The notes below the pieces were generated by a model. It had not been told where the DNA came from, made no database searches, and saw only the letters and a program-made list of their open reading frames with translations. From JBGPLH01 sp041486365 [NCBI: Thermodesulfobacteriota bacterium] (GTDB lineage Bacteria; JAUYMQ01), in assembly GCA_041486365.1 (NCBI GenBank), contig JBGPLH010000182.1, positions 1-6,736 of the forward strand: a DNA stretch of 6,736 bases, given 5' to 3'. Below are positions 1 through 4,671 of this stretch, piece after piece. Every line of letters begins with the position of its first letter. Position 1 is the stretch's first letter. The translations under genes and the position numbers were made by a program.

Positions 1-587
1 AGCGGGCTCGAGATCAGCGGCGCCTTCAGCACCGTCTCGATGTCCACCTCGCTCTGGAAGTGGGCCTTGTCGTTCATCGAGCCGTTGTGATGGTTCTTCA
101 CCGCCACCAGGGCGAGCTGCTTCTTCGTGGTGCCGTAGCGGTGGAAGTGCCGGTTGGCGGCCATGGCGAAGAGGTTGGGCGCCGTGATCCCGTAGGCCAG
201 CACCGGGTGGTTGCGCGTGTTCGGGATCCCGCGGGCGCCCGAATCCTTGAGCTTCTCGAATCCCAGCGCAAGCACGACGTCGTACATCCCGCTCGCCACG
301 GCGAAGCAGGCGTTCCTGAAAGCGTCCATGCCGCTCGCGCAGTAGTTCTCGTTGCGTGAGATCGGGATGTTCTGGATCTTCAACGCGTCGCCGAGGCTCG
401 TCCCCGCGAAGGCCGAATTCAGCGTGCCCACCCAGGCGGCCTCGATCTGCTTCGGCTCGACTCCGGCGTCCGCCAGGGCCTCGAAACCCGCCTCCACGAT
501 CATGTCCTCGATGCCCATGTGGTAGTTCTCGCCGAACTTCGAGCACCCGGTGCCCACCACCGCCACGCGATCCTTGATGCTGCCCAT
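1..587 (-). CDS. Thiolase family protein (acetyl-CoA acetyltransferase / SCP2-thiolase-like), 3' end cut by window edge
   Basis: The visible part is 195 residues, about half of a thiolase (usual length about 390-400). It starts at ATG 587 with MGSIKDRVAVVGTGCSKFGE. The nucleophile motif ENYCASGMDAF places the acyl-accepting cysteine at residue 83. The stretch around residues 145-180 (HRYGTTKKQLA, KNHHNGSMN, KAHFQSEV) is typical of the SCP2-thiolase / lipid-transfer-protein branch. The catalytic His and second Cys of the C-terminal half lie outside the window. Thiolases of this branch cleave or form 3-oxoacyl-CoA in the cytoplasm, often bound to a DUF35 protein. The upstream gene ends 11 bases before this start, and its stop codon TGA runs into the ribosome-binding sequence GAAGGAG, so the two are almost certainly co-transcribed and probably translationally coupled. 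The family assignment is firm; the substrate is unknown. Confidence 0.93.
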   Translation of the reverse strand, partial: MGSIKDRVAVVGTGCSKFGENYHMGIEDMIVEAGFEALADAGVEPKQIEAAWVGTLNSAFAGTSLGDALKIQNIPISRNENYCASGMDAFRNACFAVASGMYDVVLALGFEKLKDSGARGIPNTRNHPVLAYGITAPNLFAMAANRHFHRYGTTKKQLALVAVKNHHNGSMNDKAHFQSEVDIETVLKAPLISSP

Positions 588-598
588 CGGTTTCTCCT

Positions 599-2026
599 TC
601 AATCCCTCGGCCGCGACTTCCAGAAATAGTTCTTGAGCCCACCGCCCTCGTGGAGCTTGCGGAGCACGAGGTCCACCTCGAGCCCGATGCGGACGTCCTG
701 GGGGCCGGCGTCGGCCATCTGGACCAGCACGCGGCCGCCCCCGTCCACGTTGACCACCGTCTCGATCGTGGGCGGGTCCAGCGAGGGGAAGAGGTAGTCG
801 CTCGTGAAGGTGTGCACCGTCCCGCGCCGGGCGAGCTTTTCGTCGTCGAAATCGTCCTTGGAACCGCAGTCGACGCATACGCGCTGGCGCGGGAACTGGG
901 TCATCCCGCACTTGCGGCACTTCTCCCCGTACAGCTGCAAATCCTGTTTGAACTCGCGCCACATCACGACCGGGCTCGACGCGCCCTCGGCGGGGATGAT
1001 CTTCGCAAGATCGCGGAAGAGGGCGTACTGGCCGTAGCTCGGCATCGGGCGCTTGCGGGAGAGGTAGTAGGACACGCCGCGCCGTTCGCGCCGGGAGTCG
1101 ATCGCCTCCGTCACGCGGAAGACCAGCGCGTCGCTGCCGTCGCCGTAGCTCGCCACGACGAGCCGGTCGCCGGGCTTGGCCGTCTCGAGCGCCTGCGCGA
1201 GGCCGATGAGCGCCTGCGCGCACCCCGTGTCCCCCACGGCACCGAGCAGCGGGTCGGCGAGCTGGGTTTTCGGATCCAGCTCGAGTTTCTTCGCGACGGC
1301 CTGGGCGACGCGGGCGTTGGGTGTGTAGAGGATCAGGCGCGCGACGTCCACGGGCTTCAGGTCGAGGCGCTTGAGCAGTTTCGAGATGCTCTCGCCGAGC
1401 ACGCGCTGGTAGCCGAACTTGCCCTCGAAGCCGCCTGGGAACTGCTGGACGTAGGGATCGGCGTCGCGCCGCCAGGTCCCTACGAACTCGTCGTTGATCG
1501 AGACCTGCCCCTCGAGGATCGCGATCAGGTCGTCGGCACCGAGGAGCAGGGCGGCCGCGCCGTCTCCGAACATCATCTCGTTGGCGGTGCGGGGCTCCGC
1601 GGGACGCATGTCCGCGGCGGCGACGAGCGCGCGCCCGGAGGTCCCGGCCTTGATCGCGTCGAAGGCGGACAACATGGTCGAGGTGGCGGCCCTGAGCGTG
1701 TTGGCGCTGTCCTCCGTCCGGCACTCGCGGTCGAGATCGAGGGCCGTGGCGAGGAGCCCGGCGCCGATCTTCTCGCGATAGGGGGCCGTCGTGCTCGCGA
1801 AGTGGACCACGCGGAGGTCCGCGCGGAGCCGCTCGGGGTCGAGCCCCTCCACGCAGTTGGAGGCGGCCTCGAAGGCCATGGTGAACGTGTCCTCGTCGAA
1901 GGACGCGACCGCCTTCTCGCCCTTGGCCGCCGGCTGCTGCCACTCCCGCGCGATGATCTCCCGGGCCAGCCGGTAACGGGGGATGTAGGCGCCGAAGGAG
2001 ACGATGCCGACGGGTTGTTCGCGCAT
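599..2026 (-). CDS. Fused HMG-CoA-synthase-like / DUF35 zinc-ribbon OB-fold protein
   Basis: A 475-residue protein with two parts. Residues about 5-310 have the HMG-CoA synthase/KAS III-like thiolase fold: GIVSFGAYIPRYRL at the start, FDEDTFTMA near 43-51, FGDGAAALLLG near 153-163, and PGDRLVVASYGDGSDAL near 285-301. Residues about 355-470 are a DUF35 domain: a zinc ribbon with C370-x2-C373 and C384-x2-C387, then an OB-fold (RGTVHTFTSDYLFP onward). By my manual alignment to archaeal HMG-CoA synthases, the catalytic Cys is Leu111, the His is Tyr234 (YTPN for HQPN), the Glu is Thr79/80, and the Asn motif GNTYSG reads GDTGCA. Ordinary HMG-CoA synthase activity is therefore doubtful. The next gene is a thiolase, so a thiolase/synthase-like/DUF35 assembly is likely, as in the archaeal mevalonate complex. 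ATG 2026 is chosen over TTG 2056 because it has a strong Shine-Dalgarno site and the predicted transcript starts near 2056. Confidence 0.9.
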   Translation of the reverse strand: MREQPVGIVSFGAYIPRYRLAREIIAREWQQPAAKGEKAVASFDEDTFTMAFEAASNCVEGLDPERLRADLRVVHFASTTAPYREKIGAGLLATALDLDRECRTEDSANTLRAATSTMLSAFDAIKAGTSGRALVAAADMRPAEPRTANEMMFGDGAAALLLGADDLIAILEGQVSINDEFVGTWRRDADPYVQQFPGGFEGKFGYQRVLGESISKLLKRLDLKPVDVARLILYTPNARVAQAVAKKLELDPKTQLADPLLGAVGDTGCAQALIGLAQALETAKPGDRLVVASYGDGSDALVFRVTEAIDSRRERRGVSYYLSRKRPMPSYGQYALFRDLAKIIPAEGASSPVVMWREFKQDLQLYGEKCRKCGMTQFPRQRVCVDCGSKDDFDDEKLARRGTVHTFTSDYLFPSLDPPTIETVVNVDGGGRVLVQMADAGPQDVRIGLEVDLVLRKLHEGGGLKNYFWKSRPRD

Positions 2027-2034
2027 CCTGGGTC

Positions 2035-2040
2035 CCTCCC
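2035..2040 (-). promoter_or_regulatory. Ribosome-binding site fixing the start of the synthase-like gene
   Basis: Read on the minus strand the bases are GGGAGG, with eight bases between GGAGG and ATG 2026. The longer in-frame alternative at 2056 would be a TTG with no leader left on the predicted transcript, so this site decides the start. The protein sequence also supports it: conserved family similarity begins at GIVSFGAYIP, just after this ATG. Confidence 0.75.
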
Positions 2041-2062
2041 GTGAAATACGAAGCAACCTCAG

Positions 2063-2192: not shown

Positions 2193-3536
2193 GTGTTCCG
2201 AAAAGTCCTGATCGCCAACCGGGGAGAGATCGCCGTCCGCGTGATCCGCGCCTGCCGCGAGCTCGGGATCCCCACGGTGGCCGTCTACTCGGAGGCCGAC
2301 GCGGAGGCCGTCCACGCGAGGGCGGCGGACGAGCGCGTCCTTATCGGCCCGCCGCCCGCGAAGCAGAGCTACCTCGACGCCGGGCGGATCATCGCGGCCG
2401 CGAAGGACACCGGCGCGGAGGCGATCCATCCGGGTTACGGGTTCCTCTCGGAGCACGCCGACTTCGCGCGGCGCTGCCACGACGAGGGTCTCGTCTTCAT
2501 CGGGCCCTCGCCGGACGCGATCGAGAAGATGGGCGCCAAGGCGCTCGCCCGCGACCTCGTCCGCGCGGCGGGGGTGCCCGTCGTGCCGGGAAGCGAGTCG
2601 GGCGTGGAGACGCTGGACGAGGCGAAGCTCGTCGCCCTGGGCGTGGGCTACCCGGTGTTCCTGAAGGCCTCCGCGGGGGGTGGCGGCATGGGGATGCAGA
2701 TAGTCCCCGACGAGGCGACCCTCGATAAGGTGTTCGTCACCGCCCGGGATCGCGCGGAGTCGCTCTTCGGCCAGAACGCCGTGTACGTCGAGAAGGGGCT
2801 CCCGGGGCCTCGCCACGTGGAGTTCCAAATCTTCGGCGATGCGCAGGGGAACCTGATCCATTTCTACGAGCGCGAGTGCACGATCCAGCGCCGGCACCAG
2901 AAGGTGATCGAGGAGTCGCCTAGCCCGGCCCTCACCCCGGCACTGCGCGAGCGCATGGGCGACGCCGCGATCCGGGTGGCCCGCACGGTGGATTACGTGA
3001 ATGCCGGGACGATCGAATGCCTCGTCGATGCGGACCGTAACTTCTACTTCATCGAGATGAATACCCGGCTCCAGGTCGAGCACCCGGTCACGGAGATGAC
3101 CTGTGGGATCGACCTCGTGAAGCTCCAGCTCCGGGTGGCCAGCGGCGAGCCGCTCGGCATCCGCCAGGGGGACGTGAAGCCCCGGGGTCACGCCATCGAG
3201 CTGCGAATCTACGCGGAGGATCCCGACAGGAACTTCTTCCCCAGTCCCGGCACGATCAGGGTATGGCGGACGCCGGAGGGCGACGGGATCCGGCTGGACG
3301 CGGGCGTGGCCGAGGGATCCGTCGTGAGCGTGCACTACGACCCGATGCTCGCCAAGCTCATCGTTCGGGGCGAGCACCGCTCCGACGCCATCGCACGGGC
3401 GCTGGACGCGCTCGATCGGTTCCACGTCGAGGGCGTGAAGACCAACATCGAGCTGCACAAGCAGGTGCTGCGGCACCCCGAGTTCCAGGCCGGGACCTTC
3501 GACACCGGCTTCCTTTACAACCGCCTCAAGGCCTGA
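2193..3536 (+). CDS. Biotin carboxylase subunit of an acyl-CoA carboxylase (AccC/PccA-like)
   Basis: A 447-residue stand-alone biotin carboxylase, the normal length for AccC (about 449). It uses ATP and bicarbonate to carboxylate biotin on a carrier protein in the cytoplasm. The N-terminal Rossmann-like domain opens with FRKVLIANRGEIAVRVIRA and contains HPGYGFLSE (79-87). The ATP-grasp domain has a glycine-rich loop (KASAGGGGMGMQ, 158-169), IQRRHQKVIEE (231-241), and IEMNTRLQVEHPVTE (287-301) with E288, N290 and R292. GHAIELRI (332-339) gives R338. These match E. coli AccC numbering exactly, so it should be active. The glycine loop has Met166 and Gln169 where Arg/Lys and Arg are usual, suggesting a less common subfamily. 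GTG 2193 fits the conserved N terminus; a GAAGGG sequence ends nine bases upstream. A small biotin carrier gene follows, but no carboxyltransferase is in the window. Confidence 0.95.
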   Translation: MFRKVLIANRGEIAVRVIRACRELGIPTVAVYSEADAEAVHARAADERVLIGPPPAKQSYLDAGRIIAAAKDTGAEAIHPGYGFLSEHADFARRCHDEGLVFIGPSPDAIEKMGAKALARDLVRAAGVPVVPGSESGVETLDEAKLVALGVGYPVFLKASAGGGGMGMQIVPDEATLDKVFVTARDRAESLFGQNAVYVEKGLPGPRHVEFQIFGDAQGNLIHFYERECTIQRRHQKVIEESPSPALTPALRERMGDAAIRVARTVDYVNAGTIECLVDADRNFYFIEMNTRLQVEHPVTEMTCGIDLVKLQLRVASGEPLGIRQGDVKPRGHAIELRIYAEDPDRNFFPSPGTIRVWRTPEGDGIRLDAGVAEGSVVSVHYDPMLAKLIVRGEHRSDAIARALDALDRFHVEGVKTNIELHKQVLRHPEFQAGTFDTGFLYNRLKA

Positions 3537-3544
3537 CCGGAGGT

Positions 3545-3561
3545 CCCCCTCGAAGAGGGGG
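3545..3561 (+). other. GC-rich hairpin between biotin carboxylase and carrier genes
   Basis: Perfect seven-base arms CCCCCTC (3545-3551) and GAGGGGG (3555-3561) enclose a three-base GAA loop, nine bases after the biotin carboxylase stop. No T-run follows (the next bases are CCGACAAGAATTTATG), so a classical intrinsic terminator is unlikely. It may stabilise the upstream message end or tune the ratio of carboxylase to carrier. The carrier's own Shine-Dalgarno site lies 35 bases farther on and is not covered by the stem. Confidence 0.5.
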
Positions 3562-3609
3562 CCGACAAGAATTTATGAGCGCCATCCAAACAGTGAAGGA
3601 GCGTGATCC

Positions 3610-3825
3610 ATGGCGACCGAAGTGCCCGCCCACATCACTGGGACCGTGTGGAAGATCGAGCGGAAGGTGGGAGACTCCGTGAGCGAGGGAGACACCATCG
3701 TGATTCTCGAGTCGATGAAGATGGAGATGCCCGTCGAGGCGCCCTCGGCCGGGACGATCTCCGAGATCCGCGTCTCGGAAGGCACCCCGGTGAACGAGGG
3801 AGACGTCATCGCGGTGATCGCGTGA
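3610..3825 (+). CDS. Single-domain biotin (biotin/lipoyl) carrier protein
   Basis: A 71-residue protein that is essentially only a biotinyl/lipoyl attachment domain. The motif LESMKMEMPV places the biotinylated lysine at residue 37 in the usual Met-Lys-Met turn. The flanking repeats VGDSVSEGD and EGTPVNEGDVI form the two symmetric halves of the barrel. Full-length AccB has about 150 residues with a flexible N-terminal region, which is absent here. The closest known type is the small biotin/lipoyl attachment protein of Bacillus (YngHB), which also sits beside a separate biotin carboxylase and a crotonase gene. It should carry carboxybiotin from the preceding gene's product to a carboxyltransferase. 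A clear AAGGAG site (3596-3601) eight bases ahead fixes ATG 3610. Lipoylation is a less likely alternative given the neighbour. Confidence 0.93.
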   Translation: MATEVPAHITGTVWKIERKVGDSVSEGDTIVILESMKMEMPVEAPSAGTISEIRVSEGTPVNEGDVIAVIA

Positions 3826-3870
3826 CGTCTCCGTGCCTCGCGGATCGCGGCCCCGGACCCCGGGTGCGCC

Positions 3871-4671
3871 GTGGTAGGTGACGGCGCCGCGCGCGTGATC
3901 GTGGAGCGCCGCGACAACCTGGCGCTCCTCGTGCTCAACAATCCCGCCAAGCGCAACGCGCTCAACCCCGATCTGCTGCTCGATCTGATCGAGGCGCTCG
4001 ATCGCCTGCGCGGCGAGGACGTGCGCGCCCTCGTCTTCCGGGGCGCGGGCGAGAAGAGCTTCTGCTCCGGCTACGACATCTCCGCGATCCCCACGCGGAT
4101 CCCGCCCGAGGACTTCGCGACCCGGTCGCCCCGGAACCTTGTCCAGGAGGCGATCGGTCTCGTGGAGGAGTTCCCCCTTCCCACGATCGCCATGCTGAAC
4201 GGTCACGCCTGGGGCGCGGGATGCGAGCTGGCCACCGCCTGCGATCTTCGCGTGGCGGTCCCCGAGGCGACCTTCGGCATGCCCCCCGCGAAGCTCGGGA
4301 TCATCTACTCGCCGCGGGGCTTGAAGCGCTTCCTGAATCTGATCGGCGTGGCCAACACGAAGGAGATGTTCTTCACGGCCCGTGGCGTGGACGCGGCACG
4401 GGCGCTCGACATGGGTCTCGTGAGCCACGTCGTGCCGCGGGGGGAGCTGGAGGATTTCGTGTTCGGCCTCGCCTCCGACATTGCCGCGGGCGCGCCGCTC
4501 GCGCTCCGGGGGATGAAGCGGGTGATCGCCTTCTGCCTCGCGCACGATCTGGCGCCGGAGGACGAGGTCGAGGCCACGCGCCTCATCGCCGAAACCTTCG
4601 CGAGCGAGGACCTCGTGGAGGGCCAGGCGGCGTTCCTGGAGGGGCGGAAGCCCCGATTCAAGGGCAAGTGA
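3871..4671 (+). CDS. Crotonase-superfamily protein resembling methylmalonyl-CoA decarboxylase (YgfG/ScpB-like)
   Basis: A 266-residue crotonase-fold protein, usual length for the family. The oxyanion-hole regions are FCSGYDI (64-70) and NGHAWGAGCELATACD (110-125) with Glu119. The second catalytic Glu of enoyl-CoA hydratase (rat E164, in QPE) is replaced: the segment reads FGMPPAKLGIIYSP (135-148), with Pro139 at that place and Tyr146 matching the active-site Tyr140 of E. coli YgfG. More YgfG-like stretches, from memory of that protein, are KEMFFTA (164-170), ELEDF (192-196) and SEDLVEGQAAFLEGRKPRF (245-263). YgfG converts methylmalonyl-CoA to propionyl-CoA. His66 of YgfG is Tyr68 here, so the substrate may differ; methylglutaconyl-CoA or enoyl-CoA hydratase remain possible. 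It begins 45 bases after the carrier, in the same operon. GTG 3871 is the only reasonable start but has a weak ribosome-binding site. Confidence 0.88.
   Translation: MVGDGAARVIVERRDNLALLVLNNPAKRNALNPDLLLDLIEALDRLRGEDVRALVFRGAGEKSFCSGYDISAIPTRIPPEDFATRSPRNLVQEAIGLVEEFPLPTIAMLNGHAWGAGCELATACDLRVAVPEATFGMPPAKLGIIYSPRGLKRFLNLIGVANTKEMFFTARGVDAARALDMGLVSHVVPRGELEDFVFGLASDIAAGAPLALRGMKRVIAFCLAHDLAPEDEVEATRLIAETFASEDLVEGQAAFLEGRKPRFKGK

What the first reader, a model, noticed from the sequence alone, without database searches (positions are those of the whole stretch)
599..2026. Synthase-like domain seems to lack the whole HMG-CoA synthase catalytic set
The fold motifs of HMG-CoA synthase are clear, but by manual alignment to archaeal enzymes the nucleophilic Cys is Leu111 (TLRAATSTM where ACKAGT-type is expected), the His is Tyr234 (YTPN for HQPN), the Glu is Thr79/80, and GNTYSG reads GDTGCA. 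One cysteine, C269, sits in the last motif. The domain keeps good overall conservation, so it may be a scaffold or CoA-binding partner, or do a different Cys-independent reaction such as a retro-aldol or retro-Claisen step.
Basis: partly seen in the sequence, partly recalled or inferred. Interest (0 to 1): 0.68.

Follow-up and report, generated by a model that had tools for sequence, protein, structure and literature searches.

The report
Catalytically empty HMG-CoA-synthase-like thiolase partner
This protein looks like the enzyme HMG-CoA synthase but, like the relatives examined, has lost the catalytic residues and sits beside a thiolase, so it is most likely a non-enzymatic helper subunit of that thiolase rather than an enzyme itself.

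Summary
Window 599-2026 (-) encodes 475 aa: an HMG-CoA-synthase-like domain fused to a zinc-ribbon/OB-fold (DUF35) domain. phmmer, MAFFT and hhalign place T79, L111 and Y234 opposite the Glu, Cys and His of archaeal HMG-CoA synthase 6ESQ. Of 90 family rows none has Cys, Glu or His in those columns. C269 is not conserved (4 of 90). A thiolase lies within 1.5 kb on the same strand in 85 of 89 relatives and keeps Cys and two His where the columns are present (85 of 85, 83 of 83, 82 of 82). A solved precedent exists: PhlA, lacking Cys and Glu, in PhlABC, where only thiolase PhlC is seen to act (PMC6392133). Best reading: a fused pseudo-synthase/DUF35 adaptor of a degradative thiolase. The retro-aldol idea has no positive support but is not excluded. 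A likely relative is the unplaced 'HMG-CoA synthase' of an estrogen-degradation cluster (PMC7793797). Complex formation and reaction are untested; structure prediction failed.

The parts
599..2026 (-). Pseudo-HMG-CoA-synthase/DUF35 fusion protein, 475 aa
   Evidence: translation; NCBIfam PRK04262 226.4 bits at residues 5-341, below its cut-off of 244; PDB 6esq_I E 8.2e-29, PhlA 9skh 5.8e-28 and 5m3k 7.4e-28
1004..2014 (-). HMG-CoA-synthase-like domain (residues about 5-341), no catalytic Glu/Cys/His
   Evidence: ACP_syn_III_C at residues 218-298
1790..1792 (-). T79, column of the catalytic Glu
   Evidence: T in 77 of 90, E in 0 of 90
1694..1696 (-). L111, column of the nucleophilic Cys
   Evidence: L in 42 of 90, C in 0 of 90
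1325..1327 (-). Y234, column of the catalytic His
   Evidence: P 38, Y 22, H 0 of 90 (one gap)
662..949 (-). DUF35: zf-ChsH2 zinc ribbon and OB_ChsH2_C (residues 360-455), zinc-ribbon Cys 370/373/384/387
   Evidence: Pfam 30 and 31.5 bits, over the gathering scores 23.2 and 27.1; all four Cys in 84 of 90 rows
3..587 (-). Partner thiolase, N-terminal 195 aa (cut by the window end), nucleophile C83 in NYCASG
   Evidence: starts 11 bases after the adaptor stop codon, with AGGAG before its ATG (sequence)

Best explanation
The protein is not an HMG-CoA synthase. It is a catalytically empty HMG-CoA-synthase-like domain fused to a DUF35 domain, and it serves the thiolase encoded directly downstream, as PhlA and PhlB serve PhlC. 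The DUF35 part would staple the two thiolase-fold proteins together. The empty synthase fold would complete the CoA and substrate cavity and stabilise the complex, while the thiolase Cys and His cleave a 3-oxoacyl-CoA in a degradative, beta-oxidation-like pathway. Shown here: loss of the catalytic residues across the family sampled, an intact zinc ribbon, gene adjacency, intact thiolase catalytic residues in relatives, and co-divergence with the thiolase. Inferred: physical complex, CoA binding, the reaction and its direction, the substrate.
For: 0 of 90 family rows keep Cys, Glu or His at the HMG-CoA synthase columns. The old Cys and His columns are at the 29th and 54th conservation percentile of the domain, while the thiolase Cys and two His are at the 99th to 100th of theirs. 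A same-strand thiolase lies within 1.5 kb in 85 of 89 relatives, with Cys in 85 of 85, HDCF His in 83 of 83 and GHP His in 82 of 82 rows that have a residue there, the window's thiolase counted for Cys only. Adaptor and thiolase distances correlate, r 0.79 for the synthase-like part and 0.88 for DUF35 over 80 pairs (the window pair not among them), 0 of 999 permutations as high. The four zinc-ribbon Cys are kept in 84 of 90. In PhlABC, PhlA lacks the Cys (Gly115) and Glu (Cys83) and only PhlC residues interact with the bound phenol (PMC6392133, passages). In 6ESQ and PhlABC, DUF35 holds thiolase and synthase-like subunits together (PMC12329534, passages). In the nearest relatives L001 and L002 the order is SDR dehydrogenase, this protein, thiolase.
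Against: No structure: the AlphaFold2 model from 4 sequences was unusable (pLDDT 34.7). Two relatives lack a nearby thiolase: L018 within a 12 kb stretch, and L007 within its 6.7 kb contig. T79 (84th percentile), R141, G154, D155 and G268 are conserved in the family but differ from the active synthase, so some replacement function is possible. The PhlA paper itself leaves open that PhlA and PhlB take part in earlier steps of the pathway, and sees room for acetyl-CoA near PhlA. The co-divergence partly reflects shared ancestry of the genes. The window's own thiolase is cut off, so its His residues were not seen. P0001 is not in the PhlA branch of the tree.
Confidence: 0.75

Rival explanations
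1. The synthase-like domain runs a different, Cys-independent reaction (retro-aldol, hydration, decarboxylation) with a replacement active site.
For: T79 is T in 77 of 90 rows, and R141, G154, D155 and G268 are conserved in the family but not in 6ESQ. Ltp2 and Sal show that thiolase folds can be turned into aldolases (PMC12329534 abstract).
Against: The old Cys and His columns vary: L/T/Q/V/P/I/A/M/S/G, and P/Y/A/Q/D/S and others. C269 is not conserved. R141, G154 and G268 are shared with PhlA, which is thought to take no direct part in the acyl transfer. The aldolase conversions known to me are in the thiolase subunit, and that subunit keeps its Cys here.
Confidence: 0.12
2. A more specific form that overlaps with the best explanation: the empty domain is mainly a channelling module, which joins the preceding dehydrogenase (SDR) and the thiolase so that a bulky 3-oxoacyl-CoA passes between them.
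For: 12 fused proteins join the synthase-like domain, DUF35 and an SDR; one of the two scanned with Pfam also has an SCP2 domain. An SDR lies near the gene, same strand, within 2.5 kb, or is fused to it in 22 of 89 relatives, L001, L002 and L003 among them. In the archaeal complex thiolase and synthase share a CoA site (stated in PMC12329534).
Against: 67 of 89 relatives showed no SDR by this test, though many loci were too short to judge. The 12 fusions were fetched for their length, which inflates the 22. No SDR is seen in the window. Channelling was not tested; PMC12329534 finds it unlikely for a different DUF35 complex, Shy-Sal.
Confidence: 0.3
3. It is a working HMG-CoA synthase whose catalytic residues were shifted or misaligned.
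For: The NCBIfam model PRK04262 names five of seven scanned relatives hydroxymethylglutaryl-CoA synthase, above its cut-off; 29% identity to 6ESQ. 11 of 90 rows have a Cys within three columns of the expected place.
Against: Three alignment methods agree. The 11 nearby Cys lie at differing places and the window protein has none of them. No Cys, Glu or His at the columns in any row. P0001 scores below the cut-offs of all three HMG-CoA synthase models that it matches.
Confidence: 0.02

Closest known systems
PhlA of the PhlABC acyltransferase (Pseudomonas protegens 5M3K, Chromobacterium sphagni 9SKH)
   Same: HMG-CoA-synthase fold without catalytic Cys or Glu, works with a DUF35 protein and a Cys-thiolase; a similar GD(T/A)G motif
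   Different: PhlA and PhlB are separate chains; the complex acylates phenols for antibiotic synthesis; about 28-30% identity; a different branch of the tree
Archaeal thiolase/HMG-CoA synthase/DUF35 complex (6ESQ, Methanothermococcus)
   Same: Same three domains; DUF35 holds thiolase and synthase together (PMC12329534)
   Different: 6ESQ synthase has Glu, Cys and His at the three columns; the window protein has none
EGO55_13555 'HMG-CoA synthase' of the estrogen edc cluster, Novosphingobium tardaugens, and its likely counterpart in strain ES2-1 (L101)
   Same: L101 has closely matching order of annotated genes, is fused to DUF35, next to a thiolase and an SDR, and has none of the three catalytic residues
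   Different: Steroid pathway; the window's substrate is unknown. The EGO55_13555 sequence itself was not examined
Ltp2-ChsH2(DUF35) and Sal-Shy steroid aldolases; BbsAB benzoylsuccinyl-CoA thiolase
   Same: Thiolase fold bound to a DUF35 domain
   Different: No HMG-CoA-synthase-like subunit in these (recalled, and none mentioned in the passages seen); in Ltp2 and Sal the thiolase site is converted to an aldolase, whereas the thiolases here keep Cys and His

Membership tests
HMG-CoA synthase (archaeal type, TIGR00748/PRK04262) | Nucleophilic Cys | tested here: not met
   L111; 0 of 90
HMG-CoA synthase (archaeal type, TIGR00748/PRK04262) | Catalytic Glu and His | tested here: not met
   T79 and Y234; 0 of 90 each
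HMG-CoA synthase (archaeal type, TIGR00748/PRK04262) | Curated score cut-off | tested here: not met
   PRK04262 226.4 of 244 bits, TIGR00748 158.5 of 353.35
HMG-CoA synthase (archaeal type, TIGR00748/PRK04262) | Homology over the full domain | tested here: met
   hhalign 330 columns, E 2.4e-48, by sequence only
HMG-CoA synthase (archaeal type, TIGR00748/PRK04262) | Enzyme activity | not testable with these tools
   no assay
PhlA-type non-catalytic subunit | HMG-CoA-synthase-like domain without Cys and Glu | tested here: met
PhlA-type non-catalytic subunit | Encoded together with DUF35 and a Cys-thiolase | tested here: met
   fused DUF35, thiolase C83 next door; adjacency only
PhlA-type non-catalytic subunit | Same branch as PhlA | tested here: not met
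   P0001 in a 78-row branch (100/99) without PhlA
PhlA-type non-catalytic subunit | Physical complex of the A2C2/B4 type | not testable with these tools
   single-chain prediction only, and it failed
DUF35 (zf-ChsH2 + OB_ChsH2_C) | Zinc ribbon with four Cys and OB fold over gathering scores | tested here: met
Ltp2/Sal-type aldolase | Thiolase-fold subunit whose thiolase catalytic set is changed for an aldolase site | tested here: not met
   window thiolase keeps Cys (C83), its His residues lie beyond the window; relatives keep Cys and both His

The most novel reading that the evidence does not exclude
A large, apparently unstudied family of dead HMG-CoA synthases has become a standard adaptor of degradative thiolases. 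Fused to DUF35, and in some lineages also to the dehydrogenase, it builds beta-oxidation complexes that pass bulky 3-oxoacyl-CoAs between enzymes, including the unplaced 'HMG-CoA synthase' of estrogen degradation.
Probability: 0.35. Interest if true: 0.65.

Novelty: new variant of a known kind. Interest (0 to 1): 0.5.

Why it matters
NCBI's model PRK04262 names some of these proteins HMG-CoA synthase: five of seven relatives scanned pass its cut-off without any of the three catalytic residues (four of the seven were chosen because one search had shown them over it). Genomes can thus be credited with a mevalonate-pathway step that these genes cannot perform by the usual chemistry. The plasmid records listed call them OB-fold protein, 3-oxoacyl-ACP synthase III C-terminal protein, zinc ribbon protein or hypothetical, among other names. 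The reading gives a testable role to a gene that the estrogen-degradation work could not place in its pathway; its authors already doubted a condensing activity (PMC7793797). It would extend the PhlA precedent from an antibiotic pathway to a catabolic arrangement seen here in several bacterial phyla and haloarchaea.

Tried and rejected
Structure prediction from the window protein and three relatives (A2) failed: pLDDT 34.7. No fold search was run on it. A scan of viral contigs for more relatives found none. No whole genome is held for the window, so its missing thiolase half and the genes beyond it could not be read. C269 as a replacement nucleophile was rejected (4 of 90). HMG-CoA synthase activity by shifted residues was rejected. 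A link to the biotin carboxylase next door was not supported: no biotin carboxylase ORF over 60 bits was found in the relatives' loci searched, but most of these have only about 1.5 to 3.5 kb of flank. The tree has only one Cys-bearing synthase (6ESQ), so the number of losses of the active site was not settled. The paper on the archaeal complex (Vogeli 2018) is not held and was seen only as cited elsewhere. A promoter and terminator scan of 1900-2300 found nothing. The last genome search (57 of 59 genomes with some match, many of them only to FabH-like or DUF35 parts) drew mostly the same genomes again and entered no count.

Selection to be borne in mind. The 90 rows are P0001 plus 89 non-redundant ORFs over 95 bits from the loci I held: 3 loci and those; the best matches of two 297-genome samples of one phylum that are nearly the same sample; 40 regions that I picked from those lists, 12 of them for long open frames; weak matches from 10 genomes; a family search in 5 genomes; and 8 of 71 plasmid records. 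Fragments L081 and L083 were dropped before the conservation and tree work. Four thiolase-upstream pairs were dropped, and rows without a thiolase and the window pair could not enter the 80-pair comparison.

Full report
What is there. Window 599-2026 on the minus strand encodes 475 aa. Pfam finds a ketoacyl-synthase-III C-terminal domain (residues 218-298), a zf-ChsH2 zinc ribbon (360-391) and an OB_ChsH2_C fold (397-455). NCBIfam's best match is HMG-CoA synthase PRK04262 over residues 5-341, at 226.4 bits against a cut-off of 244; TIGR00748 gives 158.5 against 353.35 and TIGR01835 49.9 against 360.35. So the ORF is an HMG-CoA-synthase-like domain fused to DUF35. The next gene on the same strand starts 11 bases after its stop codon, with AGGAG before the ATG. 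It is a thiolase, cut by the window end at 195 aa, with the nucleophile motif NYCASG (C83).

The observation. phmmer against solved structures gives 6esq_I (archaeal HMG-CoA synthase, E 8.2e-29) and PhlA (9skh 5.8e-28, 5m3k 7.4e-28). phmmer, MAFFT and hhalign put T79, L111 and Y234 opposite a Glu, a Cys and a His of 6ESQ. That Cys and Glu are key residues is stated in the PhlA paper; that the His is catalytic, and the identity of the three in S. aureus, is recalled. The family profile aligned to S. aureus HMG-CoA synthase 1TVZ puts Glu, Cys and His in the same columns, a positive control.

Family test. I collected 89 relatives (selection described under Tried and rejected). Of 90 rows including the window protein, none has Cys at the Cys column, none Glu at the Glu column, none His at the His column (one row has a gap there). 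The Cys column holds L 42, T 11, Q 9, V 8, P 7, I 6, A 3, M 2, S 1, G 1; the His column P 38, Y 22, A 8, Q 7, D 5 and others; C269 is Cys in 4 of 90. Over 88 rows (two fragments dropped) the Cys and His columns rank at the 29th and 54th conservation percentile of the domain; the Glu column, now mostly Thr, is at the 84th. The four zinc-ribbon Cys are all present in 84 of 90 rows. Of the six exceptions, two are fragments (L081, L083), three are ORFs of synthase length that end before DUF35 (L082, L084, L085), and L102 lacks three of the four.

Partner test. A thiolase ORF lies on the same strand within 1.5 kb in 85 of 89 relatives, downstream in 80 and upstream in 5. Of the four without, L081 is a fragment at a contig end. 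L008 has a thiolase about 1.7 kb away, L018 has none within a 12 kb stretch, and L007 has none within its contig. In the alignment of these 85 and the window's thiolase, Cys is present in 85 of 85, the HDCF His in 83 of 83, the GHP His in 82 of 82, and a further His in 77 of 79 rows that have a residue there. The first three columns rank at the 99th to 100th conservation percentile of the thiolase, the last at the 90th. So the thiolases keep their catalytic columns, while the synthase-like domains do not keep theirs. Distances of adaptor and thiolase correlate (r 0.79 for the synthase-like part, 0.88 for DUF35; 80 pairs; 0 of 999 permutations as high), partly because of shared ancestry. The window thiolase is 69% identical to that of L002 over its 195 residues, while the adaptor is 47% identical, so the adaptor appears to diverge faster.

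Context. In the nearest relatives L001 and L002 the order is SDR dehydrogenase, adaptor, thiolase. Twelve relatives, fetched because their frames exceed 800 aa, fuse an SDR behind DUF35; one of the two scanned with Pfam also carries SCP2. By a strict two-query test an SDR is near or fused in 22 of 89 relatives, these 12 included. On plasmids of Sphingomonas and Variovorax the order is SDR, MaoC hydratase, adaptor, thiolase. In Novosphingobium ES2-1 it is acyl-CoA dehydrogenase, SDR, adaptor, thiolase, two enoyl-CoA hydratase-like genes, a hypothetical gene, lipid-transfer protein, OB-fold protein, P450. These look like degradative neighbourhoods. The substrate in the window is unknown; on the other strand lie a biotin carboxylase, a biotin carrier and an enoyl-CoA hydratase.

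Literature. Passages of PMC6392133: PhlABC is a Phl(A2C2)2B4 dodecamer; PhlA resembles HMG-CoA synthase but has Gly115 and Cys83 in place of Cys and Glu; only PhlC residues interact with the bound phenol, and PhlA and PhlB are very likely needed for a properly formed complex. The same passages leave open a part of PhlA and PhlB in earlier steps and see space for acetyl-CoA near PhlA. Passages of PMC12955522: activity is primarily attributed to PhlC, and only PhlC was expected to act in the C. sphagni enzyme. Passages of PMC12329534: in 6ESQ and PhlABC the DUF35 domains hold the complexes together, and 6ESQ's thiolase and synthase share a CoA site. Passages of PMC7793797: EGO55_13555, an 'HMG-CoA synthase' homologue listed next to a thiolase in the estrogen edc cluster, was one of two genes that could not be placed in the pathway; its authors found it in a different group of the HMG-CoA synthase tree and suggested that it does not condense and may have another activity, such as thiolase. 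L101 has a closely matching gene order and lacks all three residues: Glu to Thr, Cys to Leu, His to Ser. In searches of the held library I saw no paper that assigns a role to the fused family; these were listings and abstracts apart from the passages named (also passages of PMC10398937, and PMC11321319, on other DUF35 complexes), and most subscription papers are not held.

Tree. P0001 groups with L001, L002, L003 and L018 (100/97) inside a 78-row branch (100/99). 6ESQ, PhlA and 9vbo fall in the other 14-row group together with ten further Cys-less proteins, fused and unfused. The tree is rooted at its midpoint for drawing only and has one Cys-bearing row, so a single loss is possible but not shown.

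Verdict. Loss of the HMG-CoA synthase catalytic set: near certain. PhlA-like adaptor of the adjacent thiolase: likely (0.75). Replacement chemistry in the synthase-like domain: possible (0.12), with T79, R141, G154, D155 and G268 as the residues to test.

Noticed in passing
L109, L114, L119, L017, L019: NCBIfam PRK04262 names these Cys-, Glu- and His-less proteins hydroxymethylglutaryl-CoA synthase above its cut-off (368.8, 299.7, 299.3, 244.3 and 248.6 bits against 244): a likely misnaming by an equivalog model.
   Followed up: partly
L041-L052 (12 loci): Fusions of the synthase-like domain, DUF35 and an SDR dehydrogenase (SCP2 as well in L042), with a separate thiolase behind and a MaoC hydratase nearby in 10 of 12.
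   Followed up: partly
L129 (L018) and L130 (L007): Relatives of the adaptor with no thiolase nearby (12 kb stretch and 6.7 kb contig); what they would pair with is unknown.
   Followed up: partly
L002: Record titled Klebsiella pneumoniae MAG, but its adaptor is nearly identical to that of the Deltaproteobacteria MAG L001; the species label looks doubtful.
   Followed up: no
PDB 9vbo_A: A solved protein named 3-oxoacyl-ACP synthase III C-terminal domain protein also lacks Cys, Glu and His at these columns (E, C and Q instead) and groups with PhlA on a long branch.
   Followed up: no
window 2193-4671 (+): Divergent genes for a biotin carboxylase, a biotin carrier and an enoyl-CoA hydratase; no carboxyltransferase among the window ORFs scanned.
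   Followed up: no
window 650-2044 (+): A 464-codon open frame antisense to the adaptor, probably a by-product of high G+C coding.
   Followed up: no
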